NCBI GenBank assembly: GCA_023653785.1
Contig: JAMKCH010041587.1
Location: 47,287 to 111,286 of the forward strand
Direction of reading: 5' to 3'
DNA length: 64,000 bases
Source: Ophioderma brevispina
Lineage: Eukaryota; Echinodermata; Ophiuroidea; Amphilepidida; Ophiodermatidae
The notes under the pieces were generated by a model. It had not been told where the DNA came from, searched no databases, and saw nothing but the letters and a program-made list of their open reading frames with translations. Position numbers and translations under genes: made by a program. Positions 1,474 through 31,897 of the stretch are shown here, piece by piece. Each line of letters begins with the position of its first letter. Position 1 is the first letter of the stretch.

Positions 1474-1905
1474 CGTTAATGCAATGAATCCTTTGACATG
1501 ATATTAATGACTTCTTGTTTGGCATCGGTCTCAATTTGAAAGAATTATTGCCTGCTACCAGCTGAGCGCACACAAAAGACACATCTCTGCAGTAAGACGA
1601 TCGGAGATTCATAGAATATTCTATGCCACGGATGGTAAAGGGACGTCCTAGAATTAGCGGCTGGGCCGCCTGTTGTCTGGTTAGCGCTTGGTTAACTTGT
1701 GATATCCTCGGTCCACCTCCGTTAGCTCTGTCACTTCCCCAAACTTTTACTCTCCAATTGTTATTTCCATTTATTGCAGCACTATTGCTAACATCGTACA
1801 CTACTTCAAAGTCCATAGTCATTGGATTAGATTGGCCCGATATAACAGGTGTTGGCGCTAAGATTATTGAAACGCTATTGACAACGAGTTCTGGTACTGA
1901 TGCAG
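1474..1905 (-). CDS. Domain repeat d11, complete single exon (last seen)
   Basis: The exon is 432 nt, opens after TTTCTGCAG and ends at G|GTAGGT. Both boundaries are phase 1 and the frame is fully open (143 complete codons). The domain core reads N-N-W-R at about residues 48-51, where other copies have LWR, and is followed by a Gly-rich loop. Cysteines at about 105 and 112 (C-x6-C) and 136 and 141 (C-x4-C, S-C-Q-R-I-H-C) match the family spacing. It belongs to the second subtype (d9-d11), with V-C-A-x-L after the second cysteine and no E-F-x-K-G. The family is unknown to me. The leading residues 1-25 are linker. Confidence 0.85.
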
Positions 1906-2013
1906 CTGCAGAAATGTGGGGGGAAAGAAAATTGTTACAATGTTGAAAAGTTATATACTTTAATGTCCATCACGTCTACATTTACATTATTATTCAAAAC
2001 GAACACTTTTTGG

Positions 2014-2190
2014 ACCGGTGTGAAAGCAGATATAATCCAGTGGGGGCCATAGTCCGGGGCTCCATAGACGATAACGGAATAAAGCGTGAAACTAATGTTG
2101 CGTAAAGAGTCAACTGAATCGATTGCCCTATTGTTCACCATTGTTCCCGGACTATGAGTACGCCGGACAATGGTTACTTCTACACCGGTG
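2014..2190 (+). mobile_element. TCCGG-family MITE, copy a
   Basis: A non-coding element of about 177 bp with terminal inverted repeats: it opens with ACCGGTGTGAAAG and closes with TTACTTCTACACCGGT. It contains two internal TAGTCCGG-type motifs. Near copies lie at 2.18, 16.3, 16.6, 35.7, 61.7 and 63.1 kb. Confidence 0.8.
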
Positions 2191-2352
2191 TGAAAGTAAT
2201 TATAGTCCGGCAGGTATCATAGTCCGGGCTCCATAGACGACAACGGAATAAAGCGTGAAACTAATGTTGCGCAAAGAGTCAACTGAATCTATTGCCCTAT
2301 TGTTCACCATTGTTCCCGGACTGTGAGACCGGCGGACCATATCTTCCTGCCC
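2184..2352 (+). mobile_element. TCCGG-family MITE, copy b, abutting copy a
   Basis: A second copy in the same orientation, starting inside the right terminus of copy a so that the two share one ACCGGTG end. Its right end is diverged (CTTCCTGCCCACACGG). Confidence 0.75.
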
Positions 2353-3582
2353 ACACGGCGCTAGGCCAATGCGGGGTATCACAAACCCAAATTTTAGCGG
2401 TAAAGATTGGCTGTTGTGACATCGCAGCCCACACCAATTTTGTGTGTGAGAAGACCCTACGATATCGGTTTACTTCAGTTCATTGACAAACAGCTAGAGG
2501 CGCGAGACAATATTGTTTAGAAATCTAGGGCAGGTTTCGGCCAGCATGACCTCTGTCTCACTAGCTGTTAGCAGTGGTTCAGCTTCACTGCGCTAAAAGA
2601 ATGAAACCGCTGAAGCGAACCTGGGCTAGAAGTAGCCTTAAATCCAGATAAGTTAAAGTATGGAGAGGAATTCATAGAGCGTGTGATCAGTTGAGATAAT
2701 GGAATACGTATCTTTAAAATGTATGTTATGTTGTGTTTCTGAAAACAATAGCGCATCTGTAATTAACAAATAGCATCTTCTTATTTTTTAAAACCTTATA
2801 CAATGCGCAATAAAGGTACGATCAAGCAAAGAGTGCAGTAAATTTAGCGTTTGTTTTCGACTCTCAACTCGTCCACACATCATTGTTAGTAAATACTGTA
2901 TAAGGTTTAGGTACTACCACTAAAATGTGCGGGTTGTTTCAGCAAGCCCTAAAATCATTTTGCATTTATAGGAGCTACAGAACAAATCTAAACACTTGTC
3001 AGAAATTGTAAATAACGTCCATTCGTTCAACATTACTAGGCTGTTTAAAGCTTTTTAGGGCTACTAGGTAAGGGTACTTTATACACAATAATTGGGTATC
3101 ATTTCAAAGTATAGAATTATTTTGGTGACAATATTTGCTTTAAAAAAGTGCATTTCAGGTCCCAATTTATTTCCTGCCACTTCTCAAAATTTTATGGAAA
3201 TTTTTTCACCAAGTTCCCGTCCTTTTCTACGCTGTGTGTTTCAGTATCAGCTCGAATCTATGCTCTCTTTCTCTTCCTCTCAGGGATGCCATGGCTTAGT
3301 CTCAGCTTTTATACTGCCTTTTCGCGCGCGAATAATTACACCGGAGATTTGAACCAGAGCGCTTGAAATATAATGGTCCGGGGTCATTCGCGAAACGCAT
3401 ACGTAAACCTACATGTATACTCATGGTTATATCCTTACAAAATAGTAACTTTATACCAATTGCACCGTACTTCTGATTAATTGGACCACTCAGGTTTACG
3501 GCTCGGTTTTGCGAATGGACCCCAGTTTACAAAATTACGCATCTTAGGTCAAAGCCACAGTGGGTTCAAGCACATACAGCGC

Positions 3583-4412
3583 TTGGGTGATTGTGTCCGC
3601 CATTTTGAATTTTTAAATAAAATATCTATAACATATGTGATGTCGTCGGAAAGCCTATTTCATTATCTTTAATTTGATGCAAAGATAATTTCAATTGGAT
3701 AAGTATAGGCCGAGCTACAGTCTTTTGAATCAAGTATTGAGCTTTTACCCCTATCCACGGATTCCCATTTGAATGCACGGCGACCAACTAAGCAAATGAC
3801 TCCCCAAAATGATGATAAGGGCATGTCTATGGTTATGTCAAATAAAGTTGTATCTTAAAGGTGTAAAAGTCGGTGATAATGGTAAGTTTTATTTAAAATC
3901 CTTTTTTCAAGATATGGCATATTTTGGTCTACAAATATAGACAAAACTTTAAATTTGAAAAGGTTGTCACCGATGTCTATTCCTTCATACGGTATGATTC
4001 ATTCAACTCCTCCAGAAATTGATACATATATCAAGTATCAAGTTAATTTATAATGCTTTTTATGAGTGATGAGGATGTAGAGGGCATCGATGGTTAATTG
4101 TTACTGAATTTTGTGGGGTTAAATAGCGTCACATCTATTCTGCAGTCAATAAATAGCCCGATTTTTTTTTGGACAGTGATTTGCTACGCTGAACTCCGTT
4201 CACTTGAATGTGAATCCGTGGACAGAGCGCAAAACAGACTACTTAATTCAAACGACGGTAGCTCGGTTTATACCTAATCGATGTGAATGATCTTTGCAGC
4301 AAATTAAAGAGATAATGAACTATTAAGCTTTCAGATGTTACCACATATGTTAGATATATTATATCTCAAAATTCAAAATGGCGGACAAAATCAGGGTCAA
4401 TTTTTTTACTCA
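3583..4412. mobile_element. Foldback DNA element, copy 1
   Basis: Two inverted arms of about 165 bp (3583-3745 and 4243-4412) start and end with TCCGCCATTTTGAATTTT and its complement. The interior of about 500 bp is non-coding. The same arms bound the element at 43591-44739, which shows the family is mobile. Confidence 0.75.
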
Positions 4413-4557: not shown

Positions 4558-4999
4558 TTTGACATGTAACCGTTGTACAGCCTGCAATGAACTTTGGTTT
4601 GGAACTCCTTGTAGGTCAAAGTTCGTACTTTGTGTAGATATAGCTACACAAATATATGTGATGTCATTACATCCTGCACGACTCATGTCCAAATCAAAAC
4701 GCACATACTCAAATAACAAATCATTAGGCGGGATAACACTCATATCAGCCTGCTGAGGAATAAGGGCTTGGTCGAGGTTTGAATAACGGGTACCTCCCCC
4801 GTTGGCTTTTCGGCGACCCAGACGTTTAATGTCCATAGTTGAGATCCAGACACAGATTCGCTTTCGGGAGACACGTGGACGTTGACACGTAATGCTAGCT
4901 TATTCACAATGTTTTCTTCAATGGTAGGGATGGCAACTGTTATGCCGCTGAATTTGACCAAGGGTCGACTTGATGGGTGGGCGGAGACTCCATGAGCAC
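4558..4999 (-). CDS. Domain repeat d10, single exon with frameshifts
   Basis: The exon opens after TTGCTCTTGTAG in phase 1 and ends at CAAA|GTAAGG in phase 1. The first half reaches Q-L-W-T-L-N-V-W. The frame then shifts by one base near 4830 and resumes with the Gly-rich loop and a Q-A-L-I-P-Q-Q segment. C-x6-C is present (G-C-N-D-I-T-Y-I-C). A second shift near 4590 is needed to read the closing C-x4-C (G-C-T-T-V-T-C), which parallels d9 exactly. The length of 442 nt is not a multiple of three, as expected if bases were lost or gained. Subtype is as in d9 and d11. Confidence 0.75.
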
Positions 5000-5517
5000 C
5001 TACAAGAGCAATGGAAAGCGATAAGTTAATATTTTGTTATTATTGTGCTACTGCTACCGCTGATTATAATGTTGTTGTTGTTATGATGATGACGATGACG
5101 ATGATGCCGATGATGATGATTGTGCCAAAAGTTTACAGTTTTCACAATAATCATTTTTTGCCTAGGTCTTGCTCTTTTATTTAACACCTCGCTTGTAAAA
5201 AAAAGTGCAAAAATGACTGAGGTGGCTTTTTGTGCCAACTGTAGATACAAGTACGGAAATTATGTGAGAATGCTGTAACTTTACGAAGAGGGTTCTTCGA
5301 AAAATGCATAATTTTAAAATTAAAGTTTCTTTCTTAATGGTAACATTTTATTTCGAACGATTTACTTTTTACGCATTTGTGTTTATTGGTTTTCCATTAT
5401 GATCCAAAATGATGATCATTCACGTAATAAAGCTTATTTGTCCGAAGTTGTTATCAAATGCACGCACAGCCCGACAGTTTCAACATAATGGTTAATGCGG
5501 TGTATTCAGTAACTTAC
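5000..5517 (-). other. Intron between d9 and d10
   Basis: A short intron holding a trinucleotide tract (about 5066-5120) and a MITE fragment (5120-5241). Nothing else is seen. Confidence 0.6.
5066..5241. repeat. GTT/GAT microsatellite joined to a MITE fragment
   Basis: Degenerate GTT/ATG/GAT triplets to about 5120 run directly into a short, internally deleted copy of the TTGGCACAAAAAG-family MITE. It keeps GTGCCAAAAG at the left, the TAACACCTCGCTTGTAAAA segment and GTGCCAACTG followed by TA at the right. Confidence 0.65.
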
Positions 5518-5988
5518 GGTGGCACTGCGTCTTAGTACATCCAGTTAACGCCTGGTAATTCGGTTCTGCAGTTAGATCAAAGCTTGGTTCCAAATGTCGG
5601 AATGGATCATTGGATAACCTCGCGCACACATAACGTGCATAAGAACAGCGATTCCCTCTCATGTCCAGATTCATTCTGATATTGGTGAAAGCAAACGGGT
5701 ATGGTCGAACTAAAGCTTTTCCACTTTGAACATCCGTCAAGGCTTGATCCAAGCTGACCAATCGCGTGCCACTTCCGTCAGGCTTTGGACTTGTCCAGAG
5801 TTCTAACCGCCAGAGATTTGCACCGGTTACTTCATCGCTACGTTGGTCGTACACAATTTCCACGTCGATATCAAGTTGATTCTGTGCTTCTTCTGTAATG
5901 GCAACTTCTTCTGGACGAACACTTCTGATAATCACATGAGGCCTTACATCGGGAGGAGGCCCACGAGTCGTAAGGAAGGTAGATGTAG
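5518..5988 (-). CDS. Domain repeat d9, complete single exon
   Basis: The exon is 471 nt (157 codons) and opens after TCTTTTCTTAG. It ends at CACC|GTAAGT. It is phase 1 at both ends with no stop, one of the cleanest copies. Residues 1-35 are a linker with Thr and Pro. LWR is at about 58-60, followed by a P-K-P-D-G-S-G loop. Cysteines lie at 114 and 121 (C-x6-C, ending R-Y-V-C-A-R-L) and 150 and 155 (C-x4-C). It represents the second subtype: the segment between the cysteine pairs is 28 residues and lacks the acidic E-F-A-K-G-D-N-P-x-P-D-F motif of d2-d8. Function unknown; secreted location inferred from context. Confidence 0.87.
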
Positions 5989-6754
5989 CTAAGAAAAGAT
6001 AACATTAAAATAAAACATATCAGAAACACTATGATACAAGTGTTCCTTAGTAACGCTATTAAAATAAGATCTAGCTTAAGTGGTTTTGCAGTGACAAAAT
6101 CTGAAGGAATAGATTCCATTTTATAACATTAACATCCAACACCTACAGGTAAGTATAAAGTAGTTGTGACTATTCTTGGACAGATGCACCGGATACATGC
6201 AGTGGTGACTGTGTTTTTGTCGTACAAGTTGCTTATGGAATTACAGCATTAAAATTATTTAATCTTGATTTTTCTAATTTATATGGGTAGCCATTCTTTG
6301 GAATTCTGTCGAACACTCCAACTTTTGCATTAGCTACGGCTATATTGACAATGAAGACCCATTACATTAGCATCCTTAAATAGTGCTTGCTTGCACGATA
6401 TTTCAAAGAATATGCTATTACTGTTTATTTTTTGATGGAATGAGTGCAAGAAAGGATGGATGCAAAGAACAGAAAGTCATACTTGTAGGATTATAATGGA
6501 AAGGGCCGATTTAGCATTTTGCTTCATACGTATATTGCAGTTAACAGGTGCTTAAATGGAATGTATTAAGGAGATGGGTTATGAAATTGGTATTCCAATT
6601 TTGAGTGAATAATTACTGCAAGCTGTAATAGTCCCGATTCCCTCTCCCAGAGTTCATGTAATAATGCACCGAGAAATTGACCTTATGATTTCTGATGTTA
6701 TGTTACACATTATGCAGGATATTACAGCTTGTAATTATTGGATTAAATACTTAC
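5989..6754 (-). other. Intron between d8 and d9
   Basis: AT-rich, no repeat or exon signal recognised beyond the flanking splice sites. Confidence 0.5.
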
Positions 6755-7594
6755 ATGAACAAGGTGCGGCTTGACAAGACACAATGGGACCAAGAACTCC
6801 GTCTTCAACGACGAGATCAAACTCAATGGATGGTTGTTCTGCCTTGTCAAATTCTAGACACACATACTTATATCTCCCACAGCCAACTGATTTAATATCA
6901 AATTCCGTATCGACATCAAATTGCAAGAAATTTGGCGGGATTAATGGATTGCTCTGGTCAAATGGAATGAGAATCTGATGTTTGTAGTCATGCTTTGGCC
7001 CAGTGCCTTGTGCGTTTGTACTGCCGAAGATTCCCATCCGCCATAGACCTCTTCCCATAACAGCATTTACCCTATTGTTATGAGGGATTAGCATAACGTC
7101 GAGATTAATTTCTTGAGAACCATCTTGGAAGACTTTCTCAACGCTCGCTTTCCATCGAATTGCAGAGAACCACACGACTTTGCGACCAGGTATTGGGACA
7201 TACCGTCGACGTGGTTCATCCGGATAGGTTTCCTGAATATTCGGTGATACTTCGTGTGGTGAATCTGGTTGTGTTTCAGAATGTGGTAGTTGACGTTGTG
7301 GCTGGGACGATGTGCTTGGTTTGGAAAGATAACCAAGCTGATTTTCACCGACGGGGTTATGTGTTGGTTGATCTTCCTGTTCAGGTTGGTTTGTATATGG
7401 ACGAGATTGAGGTGGCTGCGGTGGTCGTGGTCTCGGTCTTGGCCTGGGTTTTTCAACGGGCTGTTGAGGACGAGGTCTATGTGTGGGCTTTGCTTTGGAC
7501 ATGGTCGGCCAAAGACGATAGTAGGGACTCTCTGTTGGCGCATGTGTAGGTCGAACGGTAGTGGCTCTAGATGTGGGATGTTGTGGTAGTTCTG
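6755..7594 (-). CDS. Pro-rich linker plus domain repeat d8 (3' part of exon)
   Basis: The exon ends at TTCAT|GTAAGT in phase 1. Reading 5' to 3', a long basic Pro-rich linker (P-R-P-R-P-R-P-R-P-P and Q-P-Q dipeptides) comes first, then a complete domain. That domain has G-R-G-L-W-R, a G-T-G-P loop, G-C-G-R-Y-K-Y-V-C (C-x6-C), L-E-F-D-K-A and a closing S-C-Q-A-A-P-C. The frame stays open from the linker through the domain. Upstream of 7594 the sequence breaks into a run of A. The true 5' end of this exon is best represented by the second copy at 8828-8939. The linker should be extended and protease-exposed, typical between extracellular modules. Confidence 0.8.
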
Positions 7595-8260
7595 AAAAAA
7601 AAAAAAAAAAAAAAAAAAGACATCTGATACCTTTGACCCCAGACAAGATGAAATTATGTGTTCACATGAAATTGTGTTTGAAATACACTCTATTAAAAAG
7701 ATTCTTTCGGATCGTGTTTTATTTAAACAGTAACATTTTGGAAATTGCGAATTTTCAGCAATACCAGTTTTGATACTTAAGTTTAACATAAGCGGTTTCT
7801 TCTGCTCACTTTAGTTTTTCGAAGCGTATGGATTAGACATCTGTTAAAATATGGTACCCAGTTGTGTTAGTTAACAATAACTCAAAACGTTTAATTGAAA
7901 CATAAAAAGAATCAGCTTGGATCACGTGAGGTTTTGTGTTTTTTTTTGTAAAAAAACTTGACCTTGGTATTTGTTTCTGCGCTAAAATCTGTCCTATAGA
8001 TTTTAAAATCTTTGTTGTTAAATGCCTATGAAACAATTCACCCTCTTAGGTACTGGGTTTCCATACCCCAAACAATACAACGGTTTTTGCAAGCGATCGT
8101 CATGATTGAAAATCTGACAACCATCGCAAAAAAGTGAGGAAGCGGCATTTTTGTTGTCAGATCTAGGAGCAATTTCTCACTAACACAAGGCAGGGGTCCT
8201 CTCCGTGATTTGTTATGTCAGTTGGGTTTTGAGGATTTAGGGACGTTAGGGACCAATGTC
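7046..8260. repeat. Duplicated segment, copy A
   Basis: Bases 7046-7594 match 8282-8827, and 7619-8260 match 9128-9549 plus 10407-10641, with scattered single-base differences mostly in homopolymers. Copy A lacks about 300 bp present between the two blocks in copy B and has a run of 24 A (7595-7618) in that place. It also lacks the 857-bp insertion at 9550-10406. An assembly duplication of two alleles is the simplest reading. Confidence 0.8.
7595..7618 (+). repeat. Poly-A run of 24 at a join
   Basis: A pure A run lies exactly where copy A loses collinearity with copy B. A second run of 21 A (8261-8281) lies at the join between the copies. Neither run is present at the matching site in copy B. 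Confidence 0.8.
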
Positions 8261-8281
8261 AAAAAAAAAAAAAAAAAAAAA

Positions 8282-8939
8282 GACCTCTTCCCATAACAGC
8301 ATTTACCCTATTGTTATGAGGGATTAGCATAACGTCGAGATTAATTTCTTGTGAACCATCTTGGAAGACTTTCTCAACGCTCGCTTTCCATCGAATTGCG
8401 GAGAACCACACGACTTTGCGACCAGGTATTGGGACATACCGTCGACGTGGTTCATCCGGATAGGTTTCCTGAATATTCGGTGATACTTCGTGTGGTAGAT
8501 CTGGTTGTGGTTCAGGATATGGTAGTTGACGTTGTGGCTGGGACGATGTGCTTGGTTTGGAAAGATAACCAAGCTGATTTTCACCGACGGGGTTATGTGT
8601 TGGTTGATCTTCCTGTTCAGGTTGGTTTGGACGAGATTGAGGTGGTTGTGGTGGTCGTGGTCTCGGTCTTGGCCTGGGTTTTTCAACGGGCTGTTGAGGA
8701 CGAGGTCTATGTGTGGGCTTTGCTTTAGACATGGTCGGCCAAAGACGATAGTAGGGACTCTCTGTTGGCCGCATGTGTAGGTCGAACGGTAGTGTACCTC
8801 TGATGTGGGTTGTTGTGGATAGTTCTGGGCCGTGGTCTTCTTGTAGGGCTTGTTTCTGTTCCTTGGTTGGTTGAGGTGGAGGAGGCGGTCGGGATTCGGG
8901 TTTGGATTTGGTCTGGGCCTGGGACGCGGCGTCTGTGGT
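8282..8939 (-). CDS. Domain repeat d8 exon, second copy, 5' part with true acceptor
   Basis: The exon opens after TTTCAATTTCCCAG in phase 1 and encodes a Thr/Pro/Arg-rich linker. It then covers the same Pro-rich linker and first half of d8 as 7046-7594, and stops being collinear at G-R-G-L inside the domain. Compared with copy A it has one extra C near 8770 that shifts the frame. The real exon is probably 8939-8828 joined to 7594-6755, with the rest redundant. The open frames on the plus strand here are antisense shadows of the biased composition. Confidence 0.7.
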
Positions 8940-11272
8940 CTGGGAAATTGAAAGGATAAATGATGAGTTGAAATGATAGATGGAAGTATGATATGCCGTT
9001 GTTGGGCGAAGAAAAGTCTATGTGATTTCAAAGGTCAAAGGAACATAAACTTGTTACAAAGTTGGGTAGTGAATTCCATAAAATGTTTCCCCTGTTCATA
9101 AATTTTAAACTAAAGGAAGGGTCAAAAGACATCTGATACCTTTGACCCCAGACAAGATGAAATGGTGTTACATGTGGAAATTGTGTTGAAATACACTCTA
9201 TAAAAAGATCTTCGGACCGTGTTTATTTAAACAGTTAACATTTTGGAAATTGCGAATTTTCAGCAATACCAGTTTTGATATTAAGTTTAAGTTAACATAA
9301 GCGGTTTTCTTCTGCTCACTTCTTAGTTTTTCGAAGCGTATGAATTAGACATCTGTTAAAATATGGACCCAGTTGGTTAGTAGCAATAACTCAAAACGTT
9401 TAATTGAATGAAAACATAAAAGAATCAGCTGGATCGTGAGGTTTTGTGTTTTTTTTTGGCAAAAAAACTGGATTTTGTATTTGTTCTGCGCTAAAATCTG
9501 GTCCTATAGATTTTAAAAAATCTTGTGTTAAATGTATTGAAACAAATTCTATGAATGGCCAAGTGGTCCTAACAAACGCGTATAAGATTCTAGCGTAAAC
9601 CTTACACGTTTAAGAGCAAACCTTACACGTCGAAGATGCAACCGAAACGTATAAGATGCAACCTTAAACGTTAAGATGCAACCTTAACGTCTAACTGGCA
9701 TATTATGCGTTGTAAGAATAGGCCAAGTGGTTCAAAAACGCGTAAGGTTGTTATTGTAACCTTACACGAGTAGTACGTATCTTACGCGTGTAAGAATTCG
9801 TTTTACACGTCTTTAGTGTTGAGCGATACGAGGAGATTTTCTTGTGGATGATATTTTTACGCATCATCCCCAAGATTGGGCAACGAGATGACTCTTTAAA
9901 AGAAAAGCAAAAAAATGTCTAATTCTTCGCCCGCGGTGACATACATTACACAATACCACCTTAAAGGAGGGTGAAAATTTGCATAATCTATGGGGACTTT
10001 TTCGTAATTGTAATTACAATGGAATGATTTCAATCCTAAATGTTGATGGCTTTTCTAATTACTTTTCACCATGTTAAAAAAATTGTAGCTTTTTTTAGAT
10101 TAATAATATGTCAATTACACTGGCCAAGTCTGTAATTAATCAGGAGCTACGTCGCATTATACCGCGATCAAATGGTATACGTCCATCACTAACGACACAT
10201 CTACGCGTGTAAGAAATATCACCTTAGATTTCTTGGTGTGCCTGCATTAGTGTAAGATGATTGGCTGAATGTGAGTTTTCACGCTTTCTCATAACATGAT
10301 ACGCAATTCAAGTGTCTCGCGCTATATAAGACGTGTAAGCGTGCATCTTTAACAGTGTAAGGTTACGCGTGAAATCTTACTTTTTTAGGACTGTTTGGCC
10401 ATTTATACAAATTCACCCTCTTAGGTACTGGGATTTCATACCCCAAAAACAATACAACACGGTTTTGAAAAGCGATCGTCATGATTGAAAATTGAAACCA
10501 TCGCAAAAAAGTGAGGAAGCGGCATTTTTGTTGTCATGATCTAGGGAGCCATTTCTCACTATCACAAGGGAGGGGTCCTCTCCGTGATTTGTTATGTCAG
10601 TTGGGTTTTGAGGATCTAGGGGGAAGTTAGGGACCAATGTCAATACGCTTTACACCAAAACACGGAATACATGAATAACATTCAAACTCAACAGGTGCTT
10701 GAGGGGAATGTTGGTCTCAATCCACGCCATGTAAACGTGTATTGTCTTTCCCGATAAAAACATACAAACTTGGAGAGGAATGGAAATCGTCGGAAACTTT
10801 TAGAGAATAAAAACCTACACTAAAAACAGCGTCATTACATTCATATAAGATGAGGTTGAGTTACATGACTGGGTTAAGACCAAGCTTACATGCAGGGATG
10901 CTTATGATGGTGTTCCTGGTATGGTAAAGGTCAGGTATAGCATTATTCATGGTTAAGATTATTGTTAAATTATTTCAGATTAAAGCTTCCATTAATATTA
11001 GTGTAATATTTGGATCCCTTTCGTACATCAGGTCACAAATAACGCGACAAATTCTTATACTAGGATTCCACTACTGTCCAGCTAGCTCTCTTATCTGAAG
11101 GTATTGAAAGAGCAACAAGGCTCTATTCAAAAATTGTATGTGTTGTTTATGTGTAGGTGGGTGTGCTGTGTGGGGGGGGGGTCACAGAGGGGCCCAGAGA
11201 TTTTAGGCGAAACTGTCCATCATCCTCGTCCCCCTCTTCCCTCGCCTATGGCGACACTGCTGTTTTCTTCAC
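8940..11272 (-). other. Intron between d7 and d8
   Basis: It contains copy B of the duplication (9128-9549 and 10407-10641) and a hAT-like insertion (9550-10406). From 10642 to 11272 I see no feature. Confidence 0.6.
9550..10406. mobile_element. hAT-like non-autonomous transposon with empty site nearby
   Basis: An 857-bp insertion flanked by the 8-bp direct repeat ACAAATTC (9542-9549 and 10407-10414). The ends are imperfect inverted repeats: the left begins TATGAATGGCCAAGTGGTCC and the right is the complement of ATAAATGGCCAAACAGTCC. Inside are many copies of CTTACACGT and its complement ACGTGTAAG, especially near the left end, resembling subterminal transposase-binding repeats. No transposase frame is seen. 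The copy A homologue has the uninterrupted site (about 8033-8039). Eight-base duplications are typical of hAT elements. Confidence 0.8.
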
Positions 11273-11494
11273 CTTTCTTGCTATGACTCAAGCACGGGAC
11301 GTTCTGGCAGGAAATCAGAGAATCTCGAATTTAACGGCATTCGGAAGTCAGGTTGTGGATTATCACCTTTAGCAAACTCGAGCATAGGAATTTGTAAGGT
11401 CCACATCCCATTTCTCTCATATCCAGTGTGGTTTGCACATCAACGCTAAGGAGTCCATTTTTGAGTGGTGGTCGGCTTGTGAGTTGGTGCAATA
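11273..11494 (-). CDS. Domain repeat d7, second-half exon with frameshifts
   Basis: The exon opens after TTTAAACAG in phase 1 and ends at AAAG|GTGAAG. It encodes S-V-D-V-Q-T-T-L-D and G-C-G-P-Y-K-F-L-C (C-x6-C). After a one-base shift comes L-E-F-A-K-G-D-N-P-Q-P-D-F, and after another shift S-C-Q-N-V-P-C (C-x4-C). All motifs are in the right order and spacing for the first subtype. It pairs with the first-half exon at 12449-12688 through a phase-1 intron. The donor is the weakest part of the model. Confidence 0.7.
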
Positions 11495-12448
11495 CTGTTT
11501 AAAAATATTTTAAAAATCCTAAAAAGTACAATTTTCACGGACTATGAACATTAAAACTATGTAGGCGTTTGCTTTTTTTTAAATTACCATGTTTTCCCCA
11601 AATCTCTGGTAAATTGGGGTCCCTTATTGTTAGTCTTCTATAATATATATAAATACTAGGAAAATGACGGTTATTCAGTCCAAATAGCAATTTTGGTTCG
11701 CTTCATATATGAAAAGTGACACTGAAAAATCGGGCTTCATGACGTGATCAATTTTTAACATATGCAGAACAATGCTTTATTGTTGACATGTATTTGAATC
11801 AAAGTTATCTTTTTCTGTTTCGCCTGTAAAGAATGCGACTTGAGCTAAGTAGAAAATGTAATCAGATTTAAAATATTTGCCCATGATGTTTGAATTTACG
11901 CCCAGACGCATTGTGGGAAATGTATATAGAGAGCTAAGGCTACAGTCAGAGTTCCTACTGAGAAAATGTTCACGTATTTAGGAAATACGCATCATGGGCA
12001 AAATAGAACAATGATAATATTTTAATAATAGGGGACGAATTCAAAATTCAACCGCCGGGTTAGCAGCGCTTCCGGTCTGTTGAACCGCGTTTCATTGTAT
12101 AAAATAGAAAACGGTTTAAAACGTTCAAACTGGAGGAACCGCCAGGCACCAGTGGTTGAGTTTGAGGGGCCCCTAACAAAATTACAAAATTTTTGAGAAT
12201 TGCCCTCCCCTCCCTATTAACATGAGTAATTGCTAGTAAAATACAAATAAGAACGTGAGAAGGAAAAGTCAAAACACAACCGCCTAAGTGGTTGGGAAAT
12301 GATGGGGTTCTGGATTTCTTGATGTAGATTATGATCTACTACATGATCTGATTTTTGATGATGTAGTTTCGTCATTTATGATGGAGATTGTGCATGGTCC
12401 CCATGGTACCAAAGTCAGGTTACATCCTTACTATCATGGTGATTTTAC
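11495..12448 (-). other. Intron inside d7
   Basis: AT-rich, separates the two halves of the domain. No feature recognised. Confidence 0.5.
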
Positions 12449-12688
12449 CTGGCGTTTGTAGCTGCCCTGGGTTCGGCACCATTGTTCCCTTGGCTACCAA
12501 ATACCCAACCGCCATAGTCGTGTTCCCGCTGATAACGTCGCTGCTCCAGTGAGGCGTGATAGTGAGTGTGAAAGAAACATCACTAGGTCCACGGGTGTTC
12601 GCAGCGGATTCATTTCCCACCAAATGGGCCAAATGCGGTTCCTTGATACTGTGGCTCGACGGTCGTTTGAAGTTGTACTGCGGTAGGT
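12449..12688 (-). CDS. Domain repeat d7, first-half exon with frameshifts
   Basis: The exon opens after TATGATTCAG in phase 1 and ends at CCAG|GTAAAA in phase 1. A short linker with basic and Ser residues leads into V-S-F-T-L-T-I. A one-base shift is then needed to reach T-R-L-W-R-L-G-I-W, and another to reach the loop before the donor. The L-W-R-L-G-I-W core is the best evidence. The second half follows at 11273-11494. Confidence 0.7.
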
Positions 12689-13882: not shown

Positions 13883-14422
13883 GATACATTTGGCTTTTGG
13901 CAGGAACTATAGAATCAGCCCGCCAGAAAGGGGAAAATAAAAGTCCGGCACCGGACTGTCCCCTTTAGCAAATTCAATGCAAAGAAGCGATAGTCAGCAA
14001 TCCTATTCCCATCAGGTCAAAGTCAGTTATAGCATAAATGCTCGGTTATAGTAAGGGATAGCAGCCTCGTTCTGATCCTCTTGGCGGAGTATTTGATGAT
14101 GATAGTCGAAGTGAGGTTCACTACCGACGGAGTCAGGCGACTTACCGAAGAGCGCCACTCTCCATAAGCCACGCCCATTGATAGTATCAGATGTGTCTGA
14201 GGGGCGGGTTACTCGGAGACGAATTAAACTTCTTGCATCGTTCATGATTATGATTGGTTGCATTGTCCAGAATAGTCCAGTTAGATCAAGCGAAGTGGCC
14301 GTGGGCCGAGACCACCGCCGTTGGAATTGTCGGGGGGTTAGGAGCAGGTTGGTTGTTGTTAGGATTATAAGGCGAAGGTTGGTGCTGTTGGAGAATGGGA
14401 CATGGACGTGAATTGGGTCGGG
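13883..14422 (-). CDS. Pro/Asn-rich linker plus domain repeat d6, single exon
   Basis: The exon is 540 nt (a multiple of three) and opens after ATGTCCTATCAG in phase 1. It ends at TATC|GTAAGT. It starts with a Pro/Asn/Gln-rich linker (P-N-N-N-Q-P-A-P-N-P-P), then shifts frame near 14295 into the domain with N-G-R-G-L-W-R-V-A-L-F-G and Y-H-H-Q-I-L. Further single-base shifts lie near 14035 and 13985. After these comes C-I-E-F-A-K-G-D-S-P-V-P-D-F and a damaged C-x4-C. A net length divisible by three despite several shifts suggests scattered compensating base errors rather than one lesion. Confidence 0.7.
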
Positions 14423-15393
14423 CTGATAGGACATGAAATGTTTGCCATATGCACACACAGTCACATATTCTCAATATTGAGAAAAATAGTAAAAAGCTAA
14501 CCCTACCGATGGAGTAAATAATTTAAGTCATATCCACAACTAGTGAGTAAAGTATACTCAACTTTGTGTAAAAGTTTACTTCAATATGACTAAGATTATT
14601 TACTCAACAAATGAGAGTGATGTTATTTTACTCAATATTGGTTAACCGTTGGCGTGCTGTGTAGTAAGAGGCAATGTGTAGTGTATTAATAATTACAAAG
14701 TGGTCGGACCATAAAAATGTCCACTCATCGCGATGTAACGTAATTACCAAATCAGTGTGTTCCTAATTGGTGTTAATTGGAATGCTAACTTTTTTGAACT
14801 CTTTGAACACTTCAACGGTCTCGCTTCATTAAGAAGAATAATGAGATTTTTTTCGGTAGTTTATTGGTTAACAATCACTAAGAGCGGCATTTGTTGGGAC
14901 ACGTTGTAGAAACACGAAATGACTTAAGTGATGAATGAGATGTTGATTAGATATCAATGTTGCAAAATTAACATGAATTGATGAAAACAAGTAACAAGTA
15001 ATTATGTAAGGTATGGAATGAATTTGAAGTAGTGAATTTAGGTTTTTATGTAACTTTAAGAAGAACAAAATAGCAATAGATAGCTCATTAACTACCTTTA
15101 TCAGATAATTTTGCCAATCATTTTGCGATTTAGTCAACATTCTGCATATTTTCTGAAAACCAATGATACCTGCTACAACATTCAGACTCTGCAGACTATT
15201 TTGGAAAACGAATTACAAAATGTGTGTTCCAAATGCAACATTATTGAGGTTTATTCGTTATCCACATAAACAGCACTTTATATTGGCTCTAAAGTATCTC
15301 ACCAAAAACCAAGATGAATCAAAAGCAAAATGGTATTAGTTGCATTAAAGATGAATATGACAGCTACTCCGATTGTAAATAGATAAAACTTAC
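14423..15393 (-). other. Intron between d5 and d6
   Basis: AT-rich, no recognised feature. Confidence 0.5.
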
Positions 15394-15500
15394 CATTACA
15401 TGGAACCATTTGACATGTTACCACTGTGTCACCTCCTGGTAATATTAAATTGAAATCGGGAACAGGACGATCTCCTTTACCAAACTCTATGCATATATAC
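15394..15500 (-). CDS. Domain repeat d5, second-part exon
   Basis: The exon is 107 nt and opens after ATCTTGAACAG. It starts in phase 2 (one base completing a codon) and ends at AATG|GTAAGT in phase 1, with an open frame. It encodes Y-I-C-I-E-F-G-K-G-D, then P-V-P-D-F and closes with T-C-Q-M-V-P-C (C-x4-C). The first cysteine of the C-x6-C pair is supplied by the exon ending at 20394, so this intron interrupts the cysteine pair itself, unlike any other copy. Confidence 0.8.
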
Positions 15501-15649
15501 CTGTTCAAGATTAATCGAAAAACAAATGAATTTTGACGTATTCTAAGAATTTTGACGTCTACTAAAATCATTGTAATTTGAAATGTAAGCTTTCAAATGT
15601 AGATTGAAAAGATTGATTAAAAGAGGTATATTGGTATTCTCGAAAGGTT

Positions 15650-20393: not shown

Positions 20394-20798
20394 CTTATTG
20401 TCCACAACCAAGCTGATACATCTCAAAGTAGGTATCGACGTCGAACACAAGCTGACGGGGTGTCTCACGCTTTTCCCTGACCGTTAACGTTTCAATACCG
20501 GCGATTATGCGGGGTGCCAACCTGCTGTCCGTTACGATCACTGCTACCATAAGTCCCAATCGCCACAAACCTTCTCCACCGATACTCTGATAATAGGGAC
20601 CCAGGGGCTACATCGAGCAGTAACTGAACACGACCGCCGGCTTCTGCAATGAAAGTTACTAATGCGAATGGTAGCCATGATGCGGATGGCGTCGTTTTTC
20701 CTCCGGTCCTCGTGCCGTCACCCTTGTGGGTGGGTTATGATTGTAGTCAGTTGTGACTCACCTGCTCCTCCTTGAACCGCCTTGGTTTAATTCACCTC
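20394..20798 (-). CDS. Domain repeat d5, first-part exon with frameshifts
   Basis: It ends at TAAG|GTACGT. The probable acceptor is CTACTCCTTATAG at 20799-20800, though the first 60-80 bases contain stops, so the start is uncertain. The domain reads A-G-G-R-V-Q-L-L-L-D-V, then after a shift G-G-E-G-L-W-R-L-G. Another shift gives the loop G-S-S-D-R-N-G-Q-Q, then L-V-F-D-V-D-T-Y-F-E and Q-L-G-C-G-Q before the donor. One missing base near the donor would make the phase match the exon at 15394-15500. At least three single-base lesions are needed, the most of any copy. Confidence 0.65.
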
Positions 20799-21231: not shown

Positions 21232-21708
21232 CTCCATTCAAGCACGGAAATGATCGACACGATACCGCAGCTTCCATTCCATGAGGTAACGGCAGATCAA
21301 AATCAGGCCTCGGGTTCACACCTTTCGCGAATTCTATGCAAATATATCGCCACGTATGGCATCCTAAGCCTGTGACCTCAATGGGCGTATATACATCGAG
21401 GAAAATCATTGGTCGTTGTGGAGCCAACGGCCAATCGGCGTAGTCTTCCGGCAATATTTGCGAGTCGTATTTGTGACGATCACCTTGGCCGTTTGGTTGT
21501 GTGCTGAAAAAAATTCCCAAACGCCAAAGTCCCTCGCCGGCAATGGAATCGGTGCTATCATCCGGTATTACGGTGACCTGTAGGGTTACATTGCTACGAC
21601 TGTTGAAATTCAAATCGTTGATTTTCAAGTTCCAATTTAGATTAGCGAGGCGAGCTACAGATCGTCTACCACTCCCACTGTTTGAGTTTCCGCTGTTACT
21701 GTTCTCAT
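21232..21708 (-). CDS. Domain repeat d4, complete single exon
   Basis: The exon is 477 nt (159 codons) and opens after TTTTCAATATCAG in phase 1. It ends at GGAG|GTATAA in phase 1 with no stop. Residues 1-20 form a Ser/Asn/Gly-rich linker. G-E-G-L-W-R-L-G-I-F is at about 57-66 and P-N-G-Q-G forms the loop. Cysteines lie at 116 and 123 (C-x6-C, G-C-H-T-W-R-Y-I-C) and 150 and 155 (C-x4-C). E-F-A-K-G and R-P-D-F lie between the pairs. This is the best reference copy of the first subtype. Confidence 0.87.
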
Positions 21709-22582: not shown

Positions 22583-22781
22583 CTCGACATGGCACACGTT
22601 GACAATTTACAATAGCCTCGCCGCCATTGTCTGGATTAAATAGGAAATCTGGTTCAGGATTATCTGCTTGAGCAAATTCAACGCATAAATAAGCATAATC
22701 ACCACATCCTACACCGGTTATAACGAACTGAGTATCGATTGTAAACTCCATATTGGTTCCTGGTATTAGAGAGCTGTTTAC
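22583..22781 (-). CDS. Domain repeat d3, second-half exon
   Basis: The exon is 199 nt and opens after CATATACAG in phase 0. It ends at CGAG|GTAATA in phase 1, fully open. It encodes a lead of about 24 residues, then G-V-G-C-G-D-Y-A-Y-L-C (C-x6-C), V-E-F-A-Q-A-D-N-P-E-P-D-F and N-C-Q-R-V-P-C (C-x4-C). Its partner first half ends at 24211. The intron phase here is 0, unlike the phase-1 splits in d1 and d7. Confidence 0.85.
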
Positions 22782-24210: not shown

Positions 24211-24472
24211 CTGTTGGTCTGTAATCGTCTTGTCTGCCTCACGTAACTGAATCGTTCATTATCGGTGCCGTCACTTTGACGGTTACCATACATTCCAACA
24301 CGCCAAAGATTACGACCATGAATCTCATTGCTATTGAGTAACACTGGTACAAGAGAGTGTTAATATCGACATTTGATGGTTCCTCCTGTCTTTTGCGCTG
24401 CCAATTCGCGTACCCCCAGCCGAAGGTGCGATTTTAATATAGGCCGTTAGACTTGCCCAGTACCATCACCTT
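24211..24472 (-). CDS. Domain repeat d3, first-half exon with frameshifts
   Basis: The exon opens after TTTTCCGTAG and ends at CAACAG|GTAAGG. A stop-containing linker (G-D-G-T-G-Q) leads, after a shift, to L-V-P-V-L-L-N-S-N-E and G-R-N-L-W-R-V-G-M-Y-G with an S-D-G-T loop. One extra base near the donor would give an in-phase Q-Q end that joins the phase-0 exon at 22583-22781. The N-L-W-R-V-G core and the matching partner exon support the call. Confidence 0.7.
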
Positions 24473-25237: not shown

Positions 25238-25271
<34 letters not shown>

Positions 25272-25373: not shown

Positions 25374-25791
25374 CTGGGCCATTGCATGGAGCACTCTACA
25401 GCCAACAATATTCGCTCGCTTTGCCACTCGAAGATCTAAATGGAAAATCCGGTTAGCGTGTTCCCCTTACTGAACCTCCAAACAGAAGAACTTGTAGCGA
25501 CTACAGCCTATCGTTCCCACATAAACTCAACAGTATCAAAAATGGAGATTAATTGGCAAGGCACTTCACTGACATATCGTCTGTGGTAGTTGAGTAATCT
25601 GTACTGTAACCTAGACAGGACCTGACCATCGACATTCTGACTACCAAAGAGACCCATCCGCCAAAGATCTGTACCTGAAACGTCTAAGGTGCCCTCATTG
25701 ATAACTATGGAATCTAATAGCAGTTCGCTTAGACCACGAGAGACGTAGTTAGTAGCTTCAACACTCCAAAAGATGCTTGTAATTGTTACAC
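25374..25791 (-). CDS. Domain repeat d2, single exon with frameshifts
   Basis: The exon opens after CTCCTTTCACAG in phase 1 and ends at CCCAG|GTAAAC. The first half is open and clear: S-G-T-D-L-W-R-M-G-L-F-G, V-D-G-Q loop, I-S-I-F-D-T-V-E-F. Shifts follow near 25505 and in the next 100 bp. Across them one can read R-Y-K-F-F-C (end of C-x6-C), L-E-F-S-K-G-N-T, then V-G-C and a trailing P-C-N-G-P-like end in a shifted frame. The 418-nt length is one more than a multiple of three. It belongs to the first subtype. Confidence 0.72.
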
Positions 25792-26143
25792 CTGTGAAAG
25801 GAGACAAAAATATCCTATGTAATAAACGGTATGAAGAGATACAGGTAATGTTTGGAAATAATATCGAGAGATATGGCCTATAGGTATTGTGGGATGTAAT
25901 GAAACGGTATCAAGAGATAAGGTAATATTATGAAACGGTGTCAATATCACATCACCACTTTCATGAGGCTTGTTTTACCTTTCACTGAATAATGAGTAAT
26001 TAATCTTTGGGTACGTAAATACTTATAAATATTGCTCTTGAAAAGTATCAGATTTTTAACGCTTAAAATTGCTTTCATGTTGAAAAATATTGATATTAAA
26101 AATCAATGAAAGGCAGTATCCAGACTGAGATCAGTCTACTTAA

Positions 26144-27111: not shown

Positions 27112-27115
27112 TTAA

Positions 27116-27205: not shown

Positions 27206-28159
27206 CCCCCCCCCCCATTTGAAGGTCAAATCAGAAAGTGGAAACGCCGCTCAGAAGTACACTGCTTGGAATATCTGAGCTTTTTGCAGTGCTTCATAAG
27301 CGCGAGTTTCCCATGCGAGTATTTACAAATGGATCAAATGCATGATGGCAATCCTCAGGAAATTTAGTGTTGTTAGAGAGGCATGAGGACATTTCCACCC
27401 TAAGAAGCTCCCCATTTTTTTCGAACAACCCTTTTATTTTGCATATTCACCTGAAGTGAATAGCCGACTACGCCGTCTTTATGTGTTTTAAGAATGAAGA
27501 TTTATTATTTTCTGTTGTGCACGACAGTAAATCAAAGCACACGTTTTTCTATATGTACGATTCACGATAGCTCAGTGAAGTTCCAAAATAAAGTTTGTGT
27601 TTTCTTTTGCACTTGTTGGTCCAAACACCCTTCGAAACTTTTCGGTAGGTGGTGGATCAACTGATCAAGTGCCATTTAATGAAAACTTCCGTATGCTCAA
27701 TAAATCCTCCCTCCTGTCACTTAAAATTTTGCGTTAATCGTATCCAAGCGGCGCATTGCGATATTTTTCTGCGTCTGGGATATTTGGAACATTATGTGAA
27801 GTGGAGATCTTAAGAATTTCCAGGATATTGACCGTCCTCGTAACCAGATATAAGTAAGTTCTATATTTATCGTGCAAATTCTTTTAAAAATGCGCAGTGT
27901 GTGTTATTTTTCCGTTGAGCCAATGCCAGCTGGCATGCTACGTGAACTGGTTTACTCTCCTGATTTTCCCAATAAAAATACAAAAATTTGCTATATTTAT
28001 TACGATGAAGGGTCGGTTGAGTGTGTTGTGAAAGGGATGTTTAAACATTTCTTAGATATAACAGAGGTGGGGCAAATTTTTTTTCTTAAAGAAATATTGA
28101 TCATATGACAATCGTATTGTGGGACTGGATGTTTGAACATTTACAATAAAAAGGTTGAT

Positions 28160-29190
28160 AATTCGTTTATTTTTCATGCCTATTTTAAATTTCCTAGCCG
28201 TAGAACAATCAGGGTTCAGCCCTGGCCGCTCCACATTGAAACAAGTCTTCGCCCTGAAGCTCCTAATCCCACATCGCCTAGAGAAGAAATATGGAAGGTT
28301 TTTTGCTGTCTTCATTGATTACAAGAAGGCATTCTATCGAGTATGGCACGATGGCCTCTTTACAGTGATCTCATTATGGTGTGCCTCAAAAAACTGATCA
28401 ACATCAACAGAGATCTCTATAACCAAGGCTAAAAGCTTGCATCAGACTTAACAGCAGTATCGTTACTCCGAGTGGTTTGAAACACTAATTGGCGTGCGCC
28501 AGGGATGTCTTCTATCACCAGACCTCTTCAACCGATTTCCTCGCATAATCTTATCATACCTTTTTGAGAAATGTAAAAATTGGGCCTAAACTTGGATGGC
28601 TACAAATTAAAAGACTCCACCCTCTAATCAAAAGCAATAATTATTTGGCATCCACAGCACTAGGGAAATTAAAGAGAGTCTGGAGTCTGGAGTGATAAGG
28701 ACATCTCACTCTCCACCAAATTACGACTTGTTAAAAATTCACTAGTCAAACCCAGTGCTTTCTTCTGGATGGCTCTGAAACCTGGACCATCAACAGAATG
28801 ACATAAGAAGTTGTGAAGCAGTTGATATGCGATTCTCACCGAAAAATCCTTAATAACCAGCCGGAAGGATAAGATCCGGATGAAGAAGTTCTGTCAATAA
28901 TCTCCTCTGCCACTTTCAACCAAAAAGGATCCTATCTCGTTCACTGCCTCACAGCTGACATGGTTTGGTCACTTGTGAAGAATGAACAACAGCCGCCTAC
29001 CACAGCATTTTCATGGAAACGTCGCAGGCCCACACAACAGACAGGGAAGACCAGGGAAGAGATGGGACGATGACATCATTGTTGGCACCACCTTCCACAA
29101 TTCAATATTGGAAGCGCGAGATAGGAATAGATGGTCTAAATTTGTTCTGAGAGCCAACGCCCTATGGGACATGGTGCATAGATAGATAGA
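28160..29190 (+). pseudogene. Decayed LINE with reverse transcriptase remnant
   Basis: Near 28195-28360 the frame gives E-Q-S-G-F-S-P-G-R-S-T and F-I-D-Y-K-K-A-F-Y-R-V, the Q-x-G-F-R-x-G-R-S-T and F-x-D-F-x-K-A-F-D signatures of non-LTR reverse transcriptases. Further along come G-S-E-T-W-T near 28770 and, at 28982-29185, G-R-P-G-K-R-W-D-D-D with a D-R-N-R-W-S-K end, followed by ATAGATAGATAGA. Several frameshifts and stops make it inactive. Confidence 0.8.
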
Positions 29191-29284: not shown

Positions 29285-29446
29285 CTGCATCACATTCGTC
29301 TCAAAAACAATTTCTAGCTTGAACCGTTGAACATCTTATCTGATTCTCTATCTCACAACTGTTGGGGTACGTCTGTCCATCGTAGCCACACACGGGAGCG
29401 TAAGCATAGGGACCGAGAGGGCGCATGACGGTGATCCATTATGACC
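29285..29446 (-). CDS. Kazal-like domain exon
   Basis: The exon is 162 nt (54 codons) and opens after CTATTCACAG in phase 1. It ends at GCAG|GTAAGA in phase 1, the same phasing as the domain exons on both sides. The frame reads S-P-S-C, then A-P-V-C-G-Y-D-G-Q-T-Y-P-N-S-C, E-I-E-N-Q-I-R-C and D-E-C-D at the end. The V-C-G-x-D-G-x-T-Y-x-N-x-C motif is diagnostic of Kazal/follistatin-type domains, which inhibit serine proteases or act as structural modules in extracellular proteins. An in-frame TGA lies six bases before the final D-E-C. It is the only exon here I can place in a known family. Confidence 0.85.
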
Positions 29447-29771
29447 TGTGAATAGAAATCCTCTGACAAATAAGAAGAGGAAGATCCATTGAGAGAGCGA
29501 AGTTTTAAGAACTGATAAAGGAAGCACAGCTCAGCATGGTTTAAGAACCCTGCTATTTAAAGAGTGAAAATCGGTATTTTGTTTAAATAAAAATAAATTT
29601 TGGGGTTACATTACTCAATCTCCACTTATCAAATTTCATAAACAGTCATGTTAAACTTTGATACTAGCCTTTAGTCAATATCCCTTTCGGTTACATTAAG
29701 CTTACCCTTTTTAACGCATCCTTCACTATCAACTTTTTCGAAGTGAGCTAAAAGCATGCGCAAAGAATCAC
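29447..29771 (-). other. Intron between d1 and the Kazal exon
   Basis: A short intron with no recognised feature. Confidence 0.45.
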
Positions 29772-29970
29772 CTGCTTGATGGTGTCCAGGCGCTGGCAAT
29801 GCCCTCTTCCCTCATATGATGAGGGAATCCCTTCCTGCATGTAACGTTCTAAGTTGAATCTGGCTCGGATTATCCCTTCGCTAATTCCAACAATTAGCGG
29901 AAGTTATCACATCCAAGAGTAGTATAATCAAATTCACCCTCTACTTCAATGAAATTCAAGGAAGTTCCAC
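29772..29970 (-). CDS. Domain repeat d1, second-half exon, degraded end
   Basis: The exon opens after CTCCTTTTTAG in phase 1, matching the donor at 31646. It encodes L-N-F-I-E-V-E-G-E-F-D, T-L-G-C-D-N-F-R, L-E-L-A-K-G, and in shifted frames D-N-P-E-P-D and V-T-C-R-K-G-F-P. An in-frame TAA follows N-F-R, where the second cysteine of C-x6-C would lie, and the last cysteine of C-x4-C is not readable. The end is uncertain: the nearest donor is AGCAG|GTGATT, and a small hairpin (TTCCCTCATCATATGAGGGAA) sits where the domain should close. Confidence 0.6.
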
Positions 29971-31645
29971 CTAAAAAGGAGAAAACGAAGATAGAGAGAT
30001 AGGGAGAGCTGGTTTTTCGCCACCCATATTTCTCTTCGCTTGGTTTTCTTCTTAGTTAAATGAACACCCAGATAAACATACAATAACAACTATGTGGGCG
30101 CTATAATAAATTTCATTATTGATTATTGACCGTGTGAACGAACTTAGTAATCTCAAATGGGCATTTTTTTTAATTTGTCGGTTTTTGTTTTTTGGTATTG
30201 TGGTAGAATTTTGCCATTTTGGTTCACAACATTATTTGGTGGCCGGGTTATTCTCAAGGGAGAATGTGGTATTTTCAATTTTTTTCAATTTTGTCAGCTT
30301 CCCCTCGTCAGAACTGCCAATAATGTTTCGAGGCAATTTGCGATTTTTTTTATAAATAAAAAGTACTTTTTGTCCGTCTACGGATGAATGTTTTTCCAAC
30401 TTAGTGAGTAACATGTTATCTGGAGACAAAGACTCGATGACAATTGCTCTCTGGTGAGTACATTCTCCTATTAATCTTCGCAATCACTAAAGGGGTTATG
30501 TGGTATCAAAACAATATTTGGACACACAACGATACAACATTCATCCCTCTAAGTATTTGAAAAGTATTCTAAGTTTGGGTTTAGCCCTTTTTTTAGCAAA
30601 CCCTGAAAAACCTTCCGTAAATTGGTTCGGTACATTATTACAGTCTTAATCCACCTCTATCTGGCATGCTGTTGGCACATAGTGTCGATCGACATTGTCA
30701 GGTGTTGCCTTGAATTTGCATAGCATGGGAAGGCAATGTGCTTATGCCAGTAGGAAGGTGAATTGACTGTGATGCCACAAACGGAACACTTTAAAATTGT
30801 TTTGAAATATTAGAAAATGACAAGATGAGATCGGTCTTTTAGTTTGTCTTTTAATCTTTTCTTTTCTACAGAATCTAAGATGCGTAACGTGGATCCGCTT
30901 TTATCATGACCATGTCCATATTTCATCTCTTTACTTTCGAGCTGAGTTATCAGGCCATTTGGAACACAATTTTCCTTGTTTTATGCTTGTTGTTACTACT
31001 GAAATGATCTAACATCTGCATCTTCTGGGGTTATATGCATCGCGGATCTAGGGAGGGGGCGGAGGGGGCGCGCTCCCCAGGTAATTCTGCAAATCAGCCC
31101 TTTTGGCCAGTTTACCTTTCAGCCCCCCGGTAACTTTGAAGTTTTTCAATCCGGATCCGCCCCTGTATGCCCAAAACCTCGGTCAAAGGCCATTTTTTGT
31201 TTTATGTCCAGTCTCCAGAGACACCCTTCTGTGCCGATTCCTGTTCAAAATTTCTGTGTCCACTCCCGATATGGAAACTACTCATAACTTGGATCACAGG
31301 TGTCTAAACTGTCGGCCAATGCGAGGAGTAGGAATATAGAAAGATAGCCACCTTAATATGTAATAGACCTGGTGGTTTTCAACAAATTTAAGGTATAAAA
31401 AAAATGACAGCAATTCATTTCATTTTGGTAATATTTTAGGAGTACTGGTACGAACATATCCTACAAACACCACCACAAACAAAGTGAGAACCCACGTTCG
31501 GAGTCAACATGAGACGGAACTAGCTAAATCGTTTAGGTAAATTCAAAAGTGTATAAAAATAGACATATATCAAAATCCTAATTGGATATCATAAACATGA
31601 AAACTACAATTATTACAACAAATATATTTTGATCATTTCAATTAC
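29971..31645 (-). other. Intron inside d1
   Basis: AT-rich, no exon or recognised mobile element. A G/C-rich patch near 31040-31170 carries no clear feature. Confidence 0.5.
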
Positions 31646-31897
31646 CTCTGGCAGGCCGGTTTTGTTGAAAAGCAGTCAGGATCTGTCGCACTTGCGTTGT
31701 TCTTTCTCCCCAGCCATTCGTTCCATTTGCTCCGACAGACCTAACGCCATAGATTGATACCATTGACACGCCCGCCATTGTCTTCTAAGATTGCGCTAAC
31801 ATCATTGAGGATAATAACACTCGGTGAGCCACGAGGGAAATCTCTTTGATGCAAGACCCCATTCAAAACCTCCCTGATAGCTCCAGTTTGGAAGAAG
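31646..31897 (-). CDS. Domain repeat d1, first-half exon with frameshift
   Basis: The exon opens after CTGTTATCTCAG and ends at CAGAG|GTAATT in phase 1. It encodes V-I-I-L-N-D-V, V-N-G-I-N-L-W-R and, after a one-base shift just behind LWR, the loop V-G-A-N-G-T-N-G-W-G and V-R-Q-I-L-T-A-F. Its second half is at 29772-29970. The acceptor gives phase 2 in the domain frame rather than 1, which one more base error in the linker would explain. It is the most 5' domain copy found. Confidence 0.7.

What the first reader, a model, noticed from the sequence alone, without database searches (positions are those of the whole stretch)
1474..31897. An apparently undescribed repeated extracellular domain in a large modular gene
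Eleven copies share L-W-R, then C-x6-C, then C-x4-C, in exons with mostly phase-1 boundaries, around a Kazal-like exon and Pro-rich linkers. The three cleanest copies (d4, d9, d11) keep both cysteine spacings exactly although the rest of the sequence diverges widely, so the fold is under selection. I know no named family with this signature.
Basis: partly seen in the sequence, partly recalled or inferred. Interest (0 to 1): 0.88.

Follow-up and report, generated by a model that had tools for sequence, protein, structure and literature searches.

The report
Echinoderm SURF-module matrix gene
The repeated domain is real, but it is almost certainly the SURF module already described in sea-urchin collagens; here it sits in an echinoderm gene that also carries a Kazal protease-inhibitor-like exon and a proline-rich linker.

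Summary
A repeated ~140-residue four-cysteine domain lies on the minus strand of window 1.4-31.9 kb. An HMM built without window copies hits 13 of 2921 window ORFs (all minus strand) and 0 of 2921 reversed ones. Exons are mostly phase 1-1. Four copies are intact in one ORF, one is split by an intron, six need frameshifts, one is a truncated duplicate.

It is not undescribed. COX1 of the genome reads as an echinoderm's. On contig C2660 two arrays of 18 and 10 copies each lie in the order VWC exon, copies, Gly-X-Y tracts, fibrillar-collagen C-propeptide exons. That is the published plan of echinoderm procollagens, whose four-cysteine repeats between VWC and minor triple helix are called SURF modules (PMC2852846, passages). 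No Pfam or NCBIfam model matched, which explains the missing name.

Possibly new is the window gene: SURF modules with a Kazal exon and a Pro-rich linker, no collagen or EGF exon found, three module positions 69-82% identical in relatives. Probably a secreted interfibrillar matrix protein. Neither a published SURF sequence nor a structure prediction was available for comparison.

The parts
1475..1900 (-). SURF module, intact; last copy towards the 3' side that was found
   Evidence: 69-81% identical to P0007, P0008, P0010, P0011
4559..4943 (-). SURF module readable only with 2 frameshifts
5516..5953 (-). SURF module, intact
   Evidence: 75-82% identical to P0005, P0006, P0009
6753..7187 (-). 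SURF module, intact
7188..7600 (-). Pro/Gln/Arg-rich linker in the same ORF as the 6.75 kb module (limits approximate)
   Evidence: translation
8280..8420 (-). N-terminal third of a module: truncated tandem duplicate of the 6.75-7.6 kb exon, cut at a homopolymer
   Evidence: 95.8% identity over 554 aligned columns
11292..12614 (-). SURF module in two pieces, 5 frameshifts, presumed intron
13934..14284 (-). SURF module, 4 frameshifts
15392..15502 (-). C-terminal part of a module (profile 107-144), perhaps the end of the 20.4 kb copy
   Evidence: the pairing is inferred
20395..20589 (-). N-terminal and middle part of a module (profile 40-109), 2-3 frameshifts
21236..21667 (-). SURF module, intact
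   Evidence: 69-70% identical to P0013
22581..24335 (-). SURF module split by an intron (profile 38-144 without frameshift; columns 1-37 not recovered in frame)
25395..25801 (-). SURF module, disrupted: 1 frameshift plus 1 stop, or 3 frameshifts, by the penalty used
29304..29438 (-). ORF with Kazal-type domain
   Evidence: PF00050 E 4.7e-7, 30.1 bits, cut-off 21
29897..31803 (-). SURF module in two pieces (31653-31803 and about 29.9 kb), 1 frameshift, presumed intron

Best explanation
The repeat is the SURF (sea urchin fibrillar) module, a secreted four-cysteine module of about 140 residues, in an echinoderm genome. Shown by computation: homologous copies, conserved cysteines, exon phases, and two loci in which arrays of it stand between a VWC exon and Gly-X-Y tracts with COLFI exons further downstream. 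The window holds a further SURF gene without collagen exons found: modules, a Kazal exon and a Pro-rich linker. Inferred: it encodes a secreted, non-collagenous matrix protein that lies between collagen fibrils and interacts with SURF-bearing collagen N-propeptides, the Kazal domain restraining serine proteases in the matrix. The symmetric phase 1-1 exons would let modules be gained, lost or skipped without breaking the frame.
For: HMM without window copies: 13 of 2921 window ORFs, 0 of 2921 reversed. C2660, all minus strand: VWC at 308.0-308.4 kb, 18 modules at 290.4-307.8 kb, four Gly-X-Y tracts at 285.1-287.9 kb, COLFI exons at 267.3-273.2 kb; and VWC at 135.3-135.5 kb, 10 modules at 112.4-134.2 kb, two Gly-X-Y tracts at 109.2-109.3 kb, COLFI exons at 41.4-44.2 kb. 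Six other stretches scanned the same way, the window included, gave no Gly-X-Y tract. Published plan: SURF modules between VWC and minor triple helix (PMC2852846); 11 SURF modules in 5alpha, also in 2alpha and fibrosurfin (PMC10817530). Echinoderm by mitochondrial code. C18777: three ORFs over the EGF cut-off beside a copy, as expected of fibrosurfin (its EGF content is recalled). Window positions 1.48, 5.5 and 21.2 kb have relatives at 69-82% identity against about 20-35% between window positions.
Against: No published SURF sequence could be aligned: the primary papers are not held. The Gly-X-Y tracts are short; the one longer ORF reached only E 0.025 for PF01391, below cut-off. COLFI at 41-44 kb is tied to the second array only by order and strand; the 44-98 kb between were not read. 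Six of eleven window copies carry frameshifts and the Kazal frame a stop, so a working protein from this gene is not shown. Function of SURF modules is unknown in the literature seen.
Confidence: 0.88

Rival explanations
1. A truly undescribed extracellular domain, perhaps Ig-like, distinct from SURF, that happens to sit in collagen genes.
For: No Pfam or NCBIfam family. The only PDB profile hit is an Ig domain, SIRP gamma 2jjw, E 1.7, not significant.
Against: Same cysteine number and same place between VWC and triple helix as the named SURF module.
Confidence: 0.04
2. The window gene is a decaying pseudogene, or at least most of its 5' modules are dead exons.
For: Frameshifts in 6 of 11 window copies against 4 of 28 modules on C2660, one each; a Cys-to-Arg change in the 20.4 kb copy; stop in the Kazal frame; the 21.2 kb position has a longer end branch (0.34) than its relative P0013 (0.10).
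Against: Key residues are kept nearly as often in disrupted copies (54 of 77) as in the 32 full-length ones (398 of 506). The 1.48 and 5.5 kb positions have short end branches (0.075, 0.055). The two tandem copies at 7.0-7.9 and 8.3-9.4 kb differ by 17 substitutions but 20 gaps, which looks like assembly indels rather than decay.
Confidence: 0.2
3. The window gene is the fibrosurfin orthologue itself.
For: Non-collagenous SURF protein in an echinoderm.
Against: A regular-expression scan found no convincing EGF-like ORF on the minus strand at 1-33 kb, while C18777 has EGF ORFs beside a copy. Fibrosurfin's EGF content is recalled, not read.
Confidence: 0.1
4. The window gene is the N-propeptide part of a further fibrillar collagen whose helix lies outside the stretch seen.
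For: Two other arrays in the genome are exactly that.
Against: No Gly-X-Y tract in the window or in the next 10 kb downstream; none of 12 COLFI matches is on C41569, though only best candidates are scored; the 37 kb of the contig further downstream was not read.
Confidence: 0.06

Closest known systems
SURF module of echinoderm fibrillar procollagens (sea urchin 2alpha, 5alpha; putative long 1alpha)
   Same: Four cysteines, repeated, between VWC and minor triple helix, echinoderm
   Different: The window gene has no collagen part found and has Kazal and Pro-rich parts
Fibrosurfin (interfibrillar SURF protein of sea urchin catch connective tissue)
   Same: Non-collagenous SURF protein; C18777 in this genome, with EGF ORFs, is the better candidate orthologue
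   Different: Window gene: Kazal instead of EGF, as far as found
Kazal-type inhibitor domain (PF00050)
   Same: One ORF at 29304-29438 over the cut-off
   Different: Only profile positions 10-35 of 49 matched; stop in frame before the likely donor
Ig V-type domains
   Same: Y-x-C-like motif; weak PDB profile hit to SIRP gamma (E 1.7)
   Different: Not significant; fold not predicted

Membership tests
SURF module | Four conserved cysteines | tested here: met
   26 of 32 full-length copies have all four
SURF module | About 140-145 residues (length recalled) | tested here: met
   32 copies as cut: 139-158 residues with margins
SURF module | Array between VWC and triple helix of a fibrillar procollagen | tested here: met
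   Two loci on C2660; definition in PMC2852846 passages
SURF module | Found in echinoderms | tested here: met
   COX1 under table 5 shows Lys (AAA) where Asn and Met (ATA) where Ile is expected, with TGA inside the frame: echinoderm/flatworm code; COX1 reference recalled
SURF module | Sequence similarity to a published SURF module | not tested
   Primary papers not held; no echinoderm protein collection at hand
Fibrillar procollagen (window gene) | Gly-X-Y helix and COLFI domain | tested here: not met
   0 tracts in 64 kb plus 10 kb downstream; 0 of 12 COLFI matches on C41569; 37 kb of the contig not read
Fibrosurfin (window gene) | EGF-like modules with SURF (EGF recalled) | tested here: inconclusive
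   No convincing EGF by regular expression at 1-33 kb minus strand; no profile scan of all exons
Kazal domain | PF00050 over curated cut-off | tested here: met
   30.1 bits against 21
Ig superfamily | Ig-like fold | tested here: inconclusive
   PDB profile search E 1.7; structure prediction never ran

The most novel reading that the evidence does not exclude
The window encodes a conserved class of SURF protein not in the literature seen: SURF modules with a Kazal inhibitor domain and Pro-rich linkers, an interfibrillar component of echinoderm (mutable) collagenous tissue that couples SURF-decorated fibrils and guards them from serine proteases; conserved module by module between species.
Probability: 0.4. 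Interest if true: 0.5.

Novelty: new member of a known kind. Interest (0 to 1): 0.3.

Why it matters
It settles that the 'unknown' domain is a known echinoderm collagen module that lacks a Pfam model, so automatic annotation leaves it nameless. The alignment of 32 copies plus 36 homologs could serve as such a model. SURF proteins are suspected of a role in the variable stiffness of echinoderm tissue (PMC10817530, passages); a non-collagen SURF gene with a Kazal exon would add a testable candidate.

Tried and rejected
Mollusc origin: looked for mollusc haemocyanin PF14830, 0 matches, but the control rang nowhere, so this says nothing. Early paper searches for a new mollusc or echinoderm domain and for sponge aggregation factor gave no name for the domain. 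Viral contigs: 12 pattern matches, none confirmed. Genome-contig scan with A3 was not possible: no conserved stretch. CHRD, WIF and Ig folds were considered from memory and not pursued. HSP70 as a control for assembly quality: one full-length open frame of 640 aa, many broken or split matches, not decisive. Kazal in the own genome, a haplotig check by DNA and a second copy-count search did not complete (112, 120, 124, 126; 69, 80, 85, 114).

It was cut short by a formatting fault, and that same turn held a call to a tool that does not exist.
Full report
What was checked. The window is the last 64 kb of contig C41569 (111,286 bases) of a 2.51-Gb genome in 65,844 contigs. Four ORFs on the minus strand (window 1.48, 5.5, 6.75 and 21.2 kb) align over about 140 residues with invariant G, W, R, G.G, Q, L and four cysteines. 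A profile from these four finds 14 ORFs above HMMER's inclusion threshold in the window, the four included, all minus strand. A profile from the 28 non-window copies finds 13 of 2921 ORFs and none of 2921 reversed ORFs. So the repeat is real.

Copies in the window. Intact in one ORF: 1475-1900, 5516-5953, 6753-7187, 21236-21667. Split by an intron and in frame for profile positions 38-144: 22581-24335. Six copies need frameshifts: 4559-4943 (2), 11292-12614 (5), 13934-14284 (4), 20395-20589 with perhaps 15392-15502 (3), 25395-25801 (3, or 1 plus a stop), 29.9-31.8 kb (1). 8280-8420 is a truncated tandem duplicate. On C2660 4 of 28 modules carry one frameshift each. Disrupted window copies keep 54 of 77 key residues against 398 of 506 in the 32 full-length copies. 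The two tandem copies differ by 17 substitutions and 20 gaps. I read this as assembly indels more than decay, but it is not settled; the Cys-to-Arg change at 20.4 kb and the stop in the Kazal frame speak for decay.

Spread in the genome. A tblastn-like search with the 5.5 kb copy gave 56 matches at E<=10, of which 29 at E<=1e-3. Twenty stretches around them were fetched and gave 32 full-length copies including the 4 of the window. Best-scoring donors are phase 1 in 31 of 32 and acceptors in 29 of 32.

Relatives elsewhere. Three searches of 5.8 billion predicted proteins gave 8, 4 and 24 homologs, none named, none with a Pfam domain; each search sampled other words, so these are lower bounds. 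In a tree of 67 rows (one homolog left out as too short) P0005, P0006 and P0009 group with the 5.5 kb copy (75-82% identity), P0007, P0008, P0010 and P0011 with the 1.48 kb copy (69-81%), P0013 with the 21.2 kb copy (70%). P0007, P0009 and P0013 report the same longest contig length, 9432, so presumably stand on one contig in another animal. Likewise P0018, P0025 and P0037 (contig length 288,270) pair with C2660 copies at 304.2, 296.7 and 302.9 kb. Module positions are thus older than the split of these animals and constrained since. The deep branches of the tree are weakly supported.

What the domain is. Pfam gave only scattered matches, one member each and none better than E 0.036, for 32 copies; NCBIfam likewise, none better than 0.02. 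The PDB profile search gave one hit at E 1.7. The decisive evidence is the company. On C2660, same strand and order: VWC (E 1.3e-10), 18 modules, four Gly-X-Y tracts (one an 18-residue, 54-base tract flanked by AG and followed by GTGAGT), COLFI exons; and again VWC (E 3.7e-10), 10 modules, two Gly-X-Y tracts, COLFI exons 65 kb further on. The COLFI matches lie at four places in the genome (C9238, C34859, two on C2660); [quoted passage not shown] PMC10817530 (passages) gives 11 SURF modules in the 5alpha N-propeptide and says they occur in 2alpha and in fibrosurfin. C18777 has three EGF ORFs over the cut-off (2e-7, 6.5e-6, 1.7e-4) beside a copy, which fits fibrosurfin as I recall it. The animal: COX1 on contig C3 has TGA inside the frame, and under table 5 shows Lys at places where COX1 has Asn and Met where it has Ile (the comparison is from memory), that is the echinoderm code; flatworms share the code but not, as I recall, this kind of COX1. 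The class is not determined.

What the window gene is. It has SURF modules, a Kazal ORF (PF00050 4.7e-7) and a Pro-rich linker, no Gly-X-Y tract in the window or the next 10 kb, no COLFI match on its contig, and no convincing EGF by regular expression. Start and end of the gene were not found. A search for papers with sea urchin, collagen, SURF and Kazal as whole words gave 0, in a library that lacks most subscription journals. So a SURF-Kazal protein may be unreported, but I could not search annotated echinoderm proteomes.

How it may work. Shown: homology, constraint, architecture. From the papers: the 5alpha N-propeptide stays at the fibril surface, cleaved 2alpha N-propeptides were located at the periphery of fibril bundles, and SURF proteins are suspected of a role in variable tensility (PMC10817530). 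Inferred: the window protein is secreted, sits between fibrils, and touches SURF arrays on the fibrils; the Kazal part restrains serine proteases there. None of these last steps was tested.

Verdict.

Noticed in passing
window 28137-28394 (+): Reverse-transcriptase fragment (PF00078, E 8.2e-7, 29.4 bits, just under the cut-off 29.6).
   Followed up: partly
window 7045-7899 and 8281-9408: Tandem copies that differ by 17 substitutions but 20 gaps, with a module cut at a homopolymer: possibly an assembly artefact.
   Followed up: partly
L018:4320-4589 (C6657): LDL-receptor class B (YWTD) ORF about 2 kb from a SURF copy on the same strand (PF00058, 21.6 bits against cut-off 21); perhaps another SURF architecture.
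   Followed up: no
L025 and L026 (C14194): Split SURF modules and a weak VWC match (E 0.032, under cut-off): perhaps a further SURF gene.
   Followed up: no
C46017:70301-71626 and C36015:3136-4345: Broken COX1-like stretches besides the mitochondrial contig C3, probably nuclear copies.
   Followed up: no
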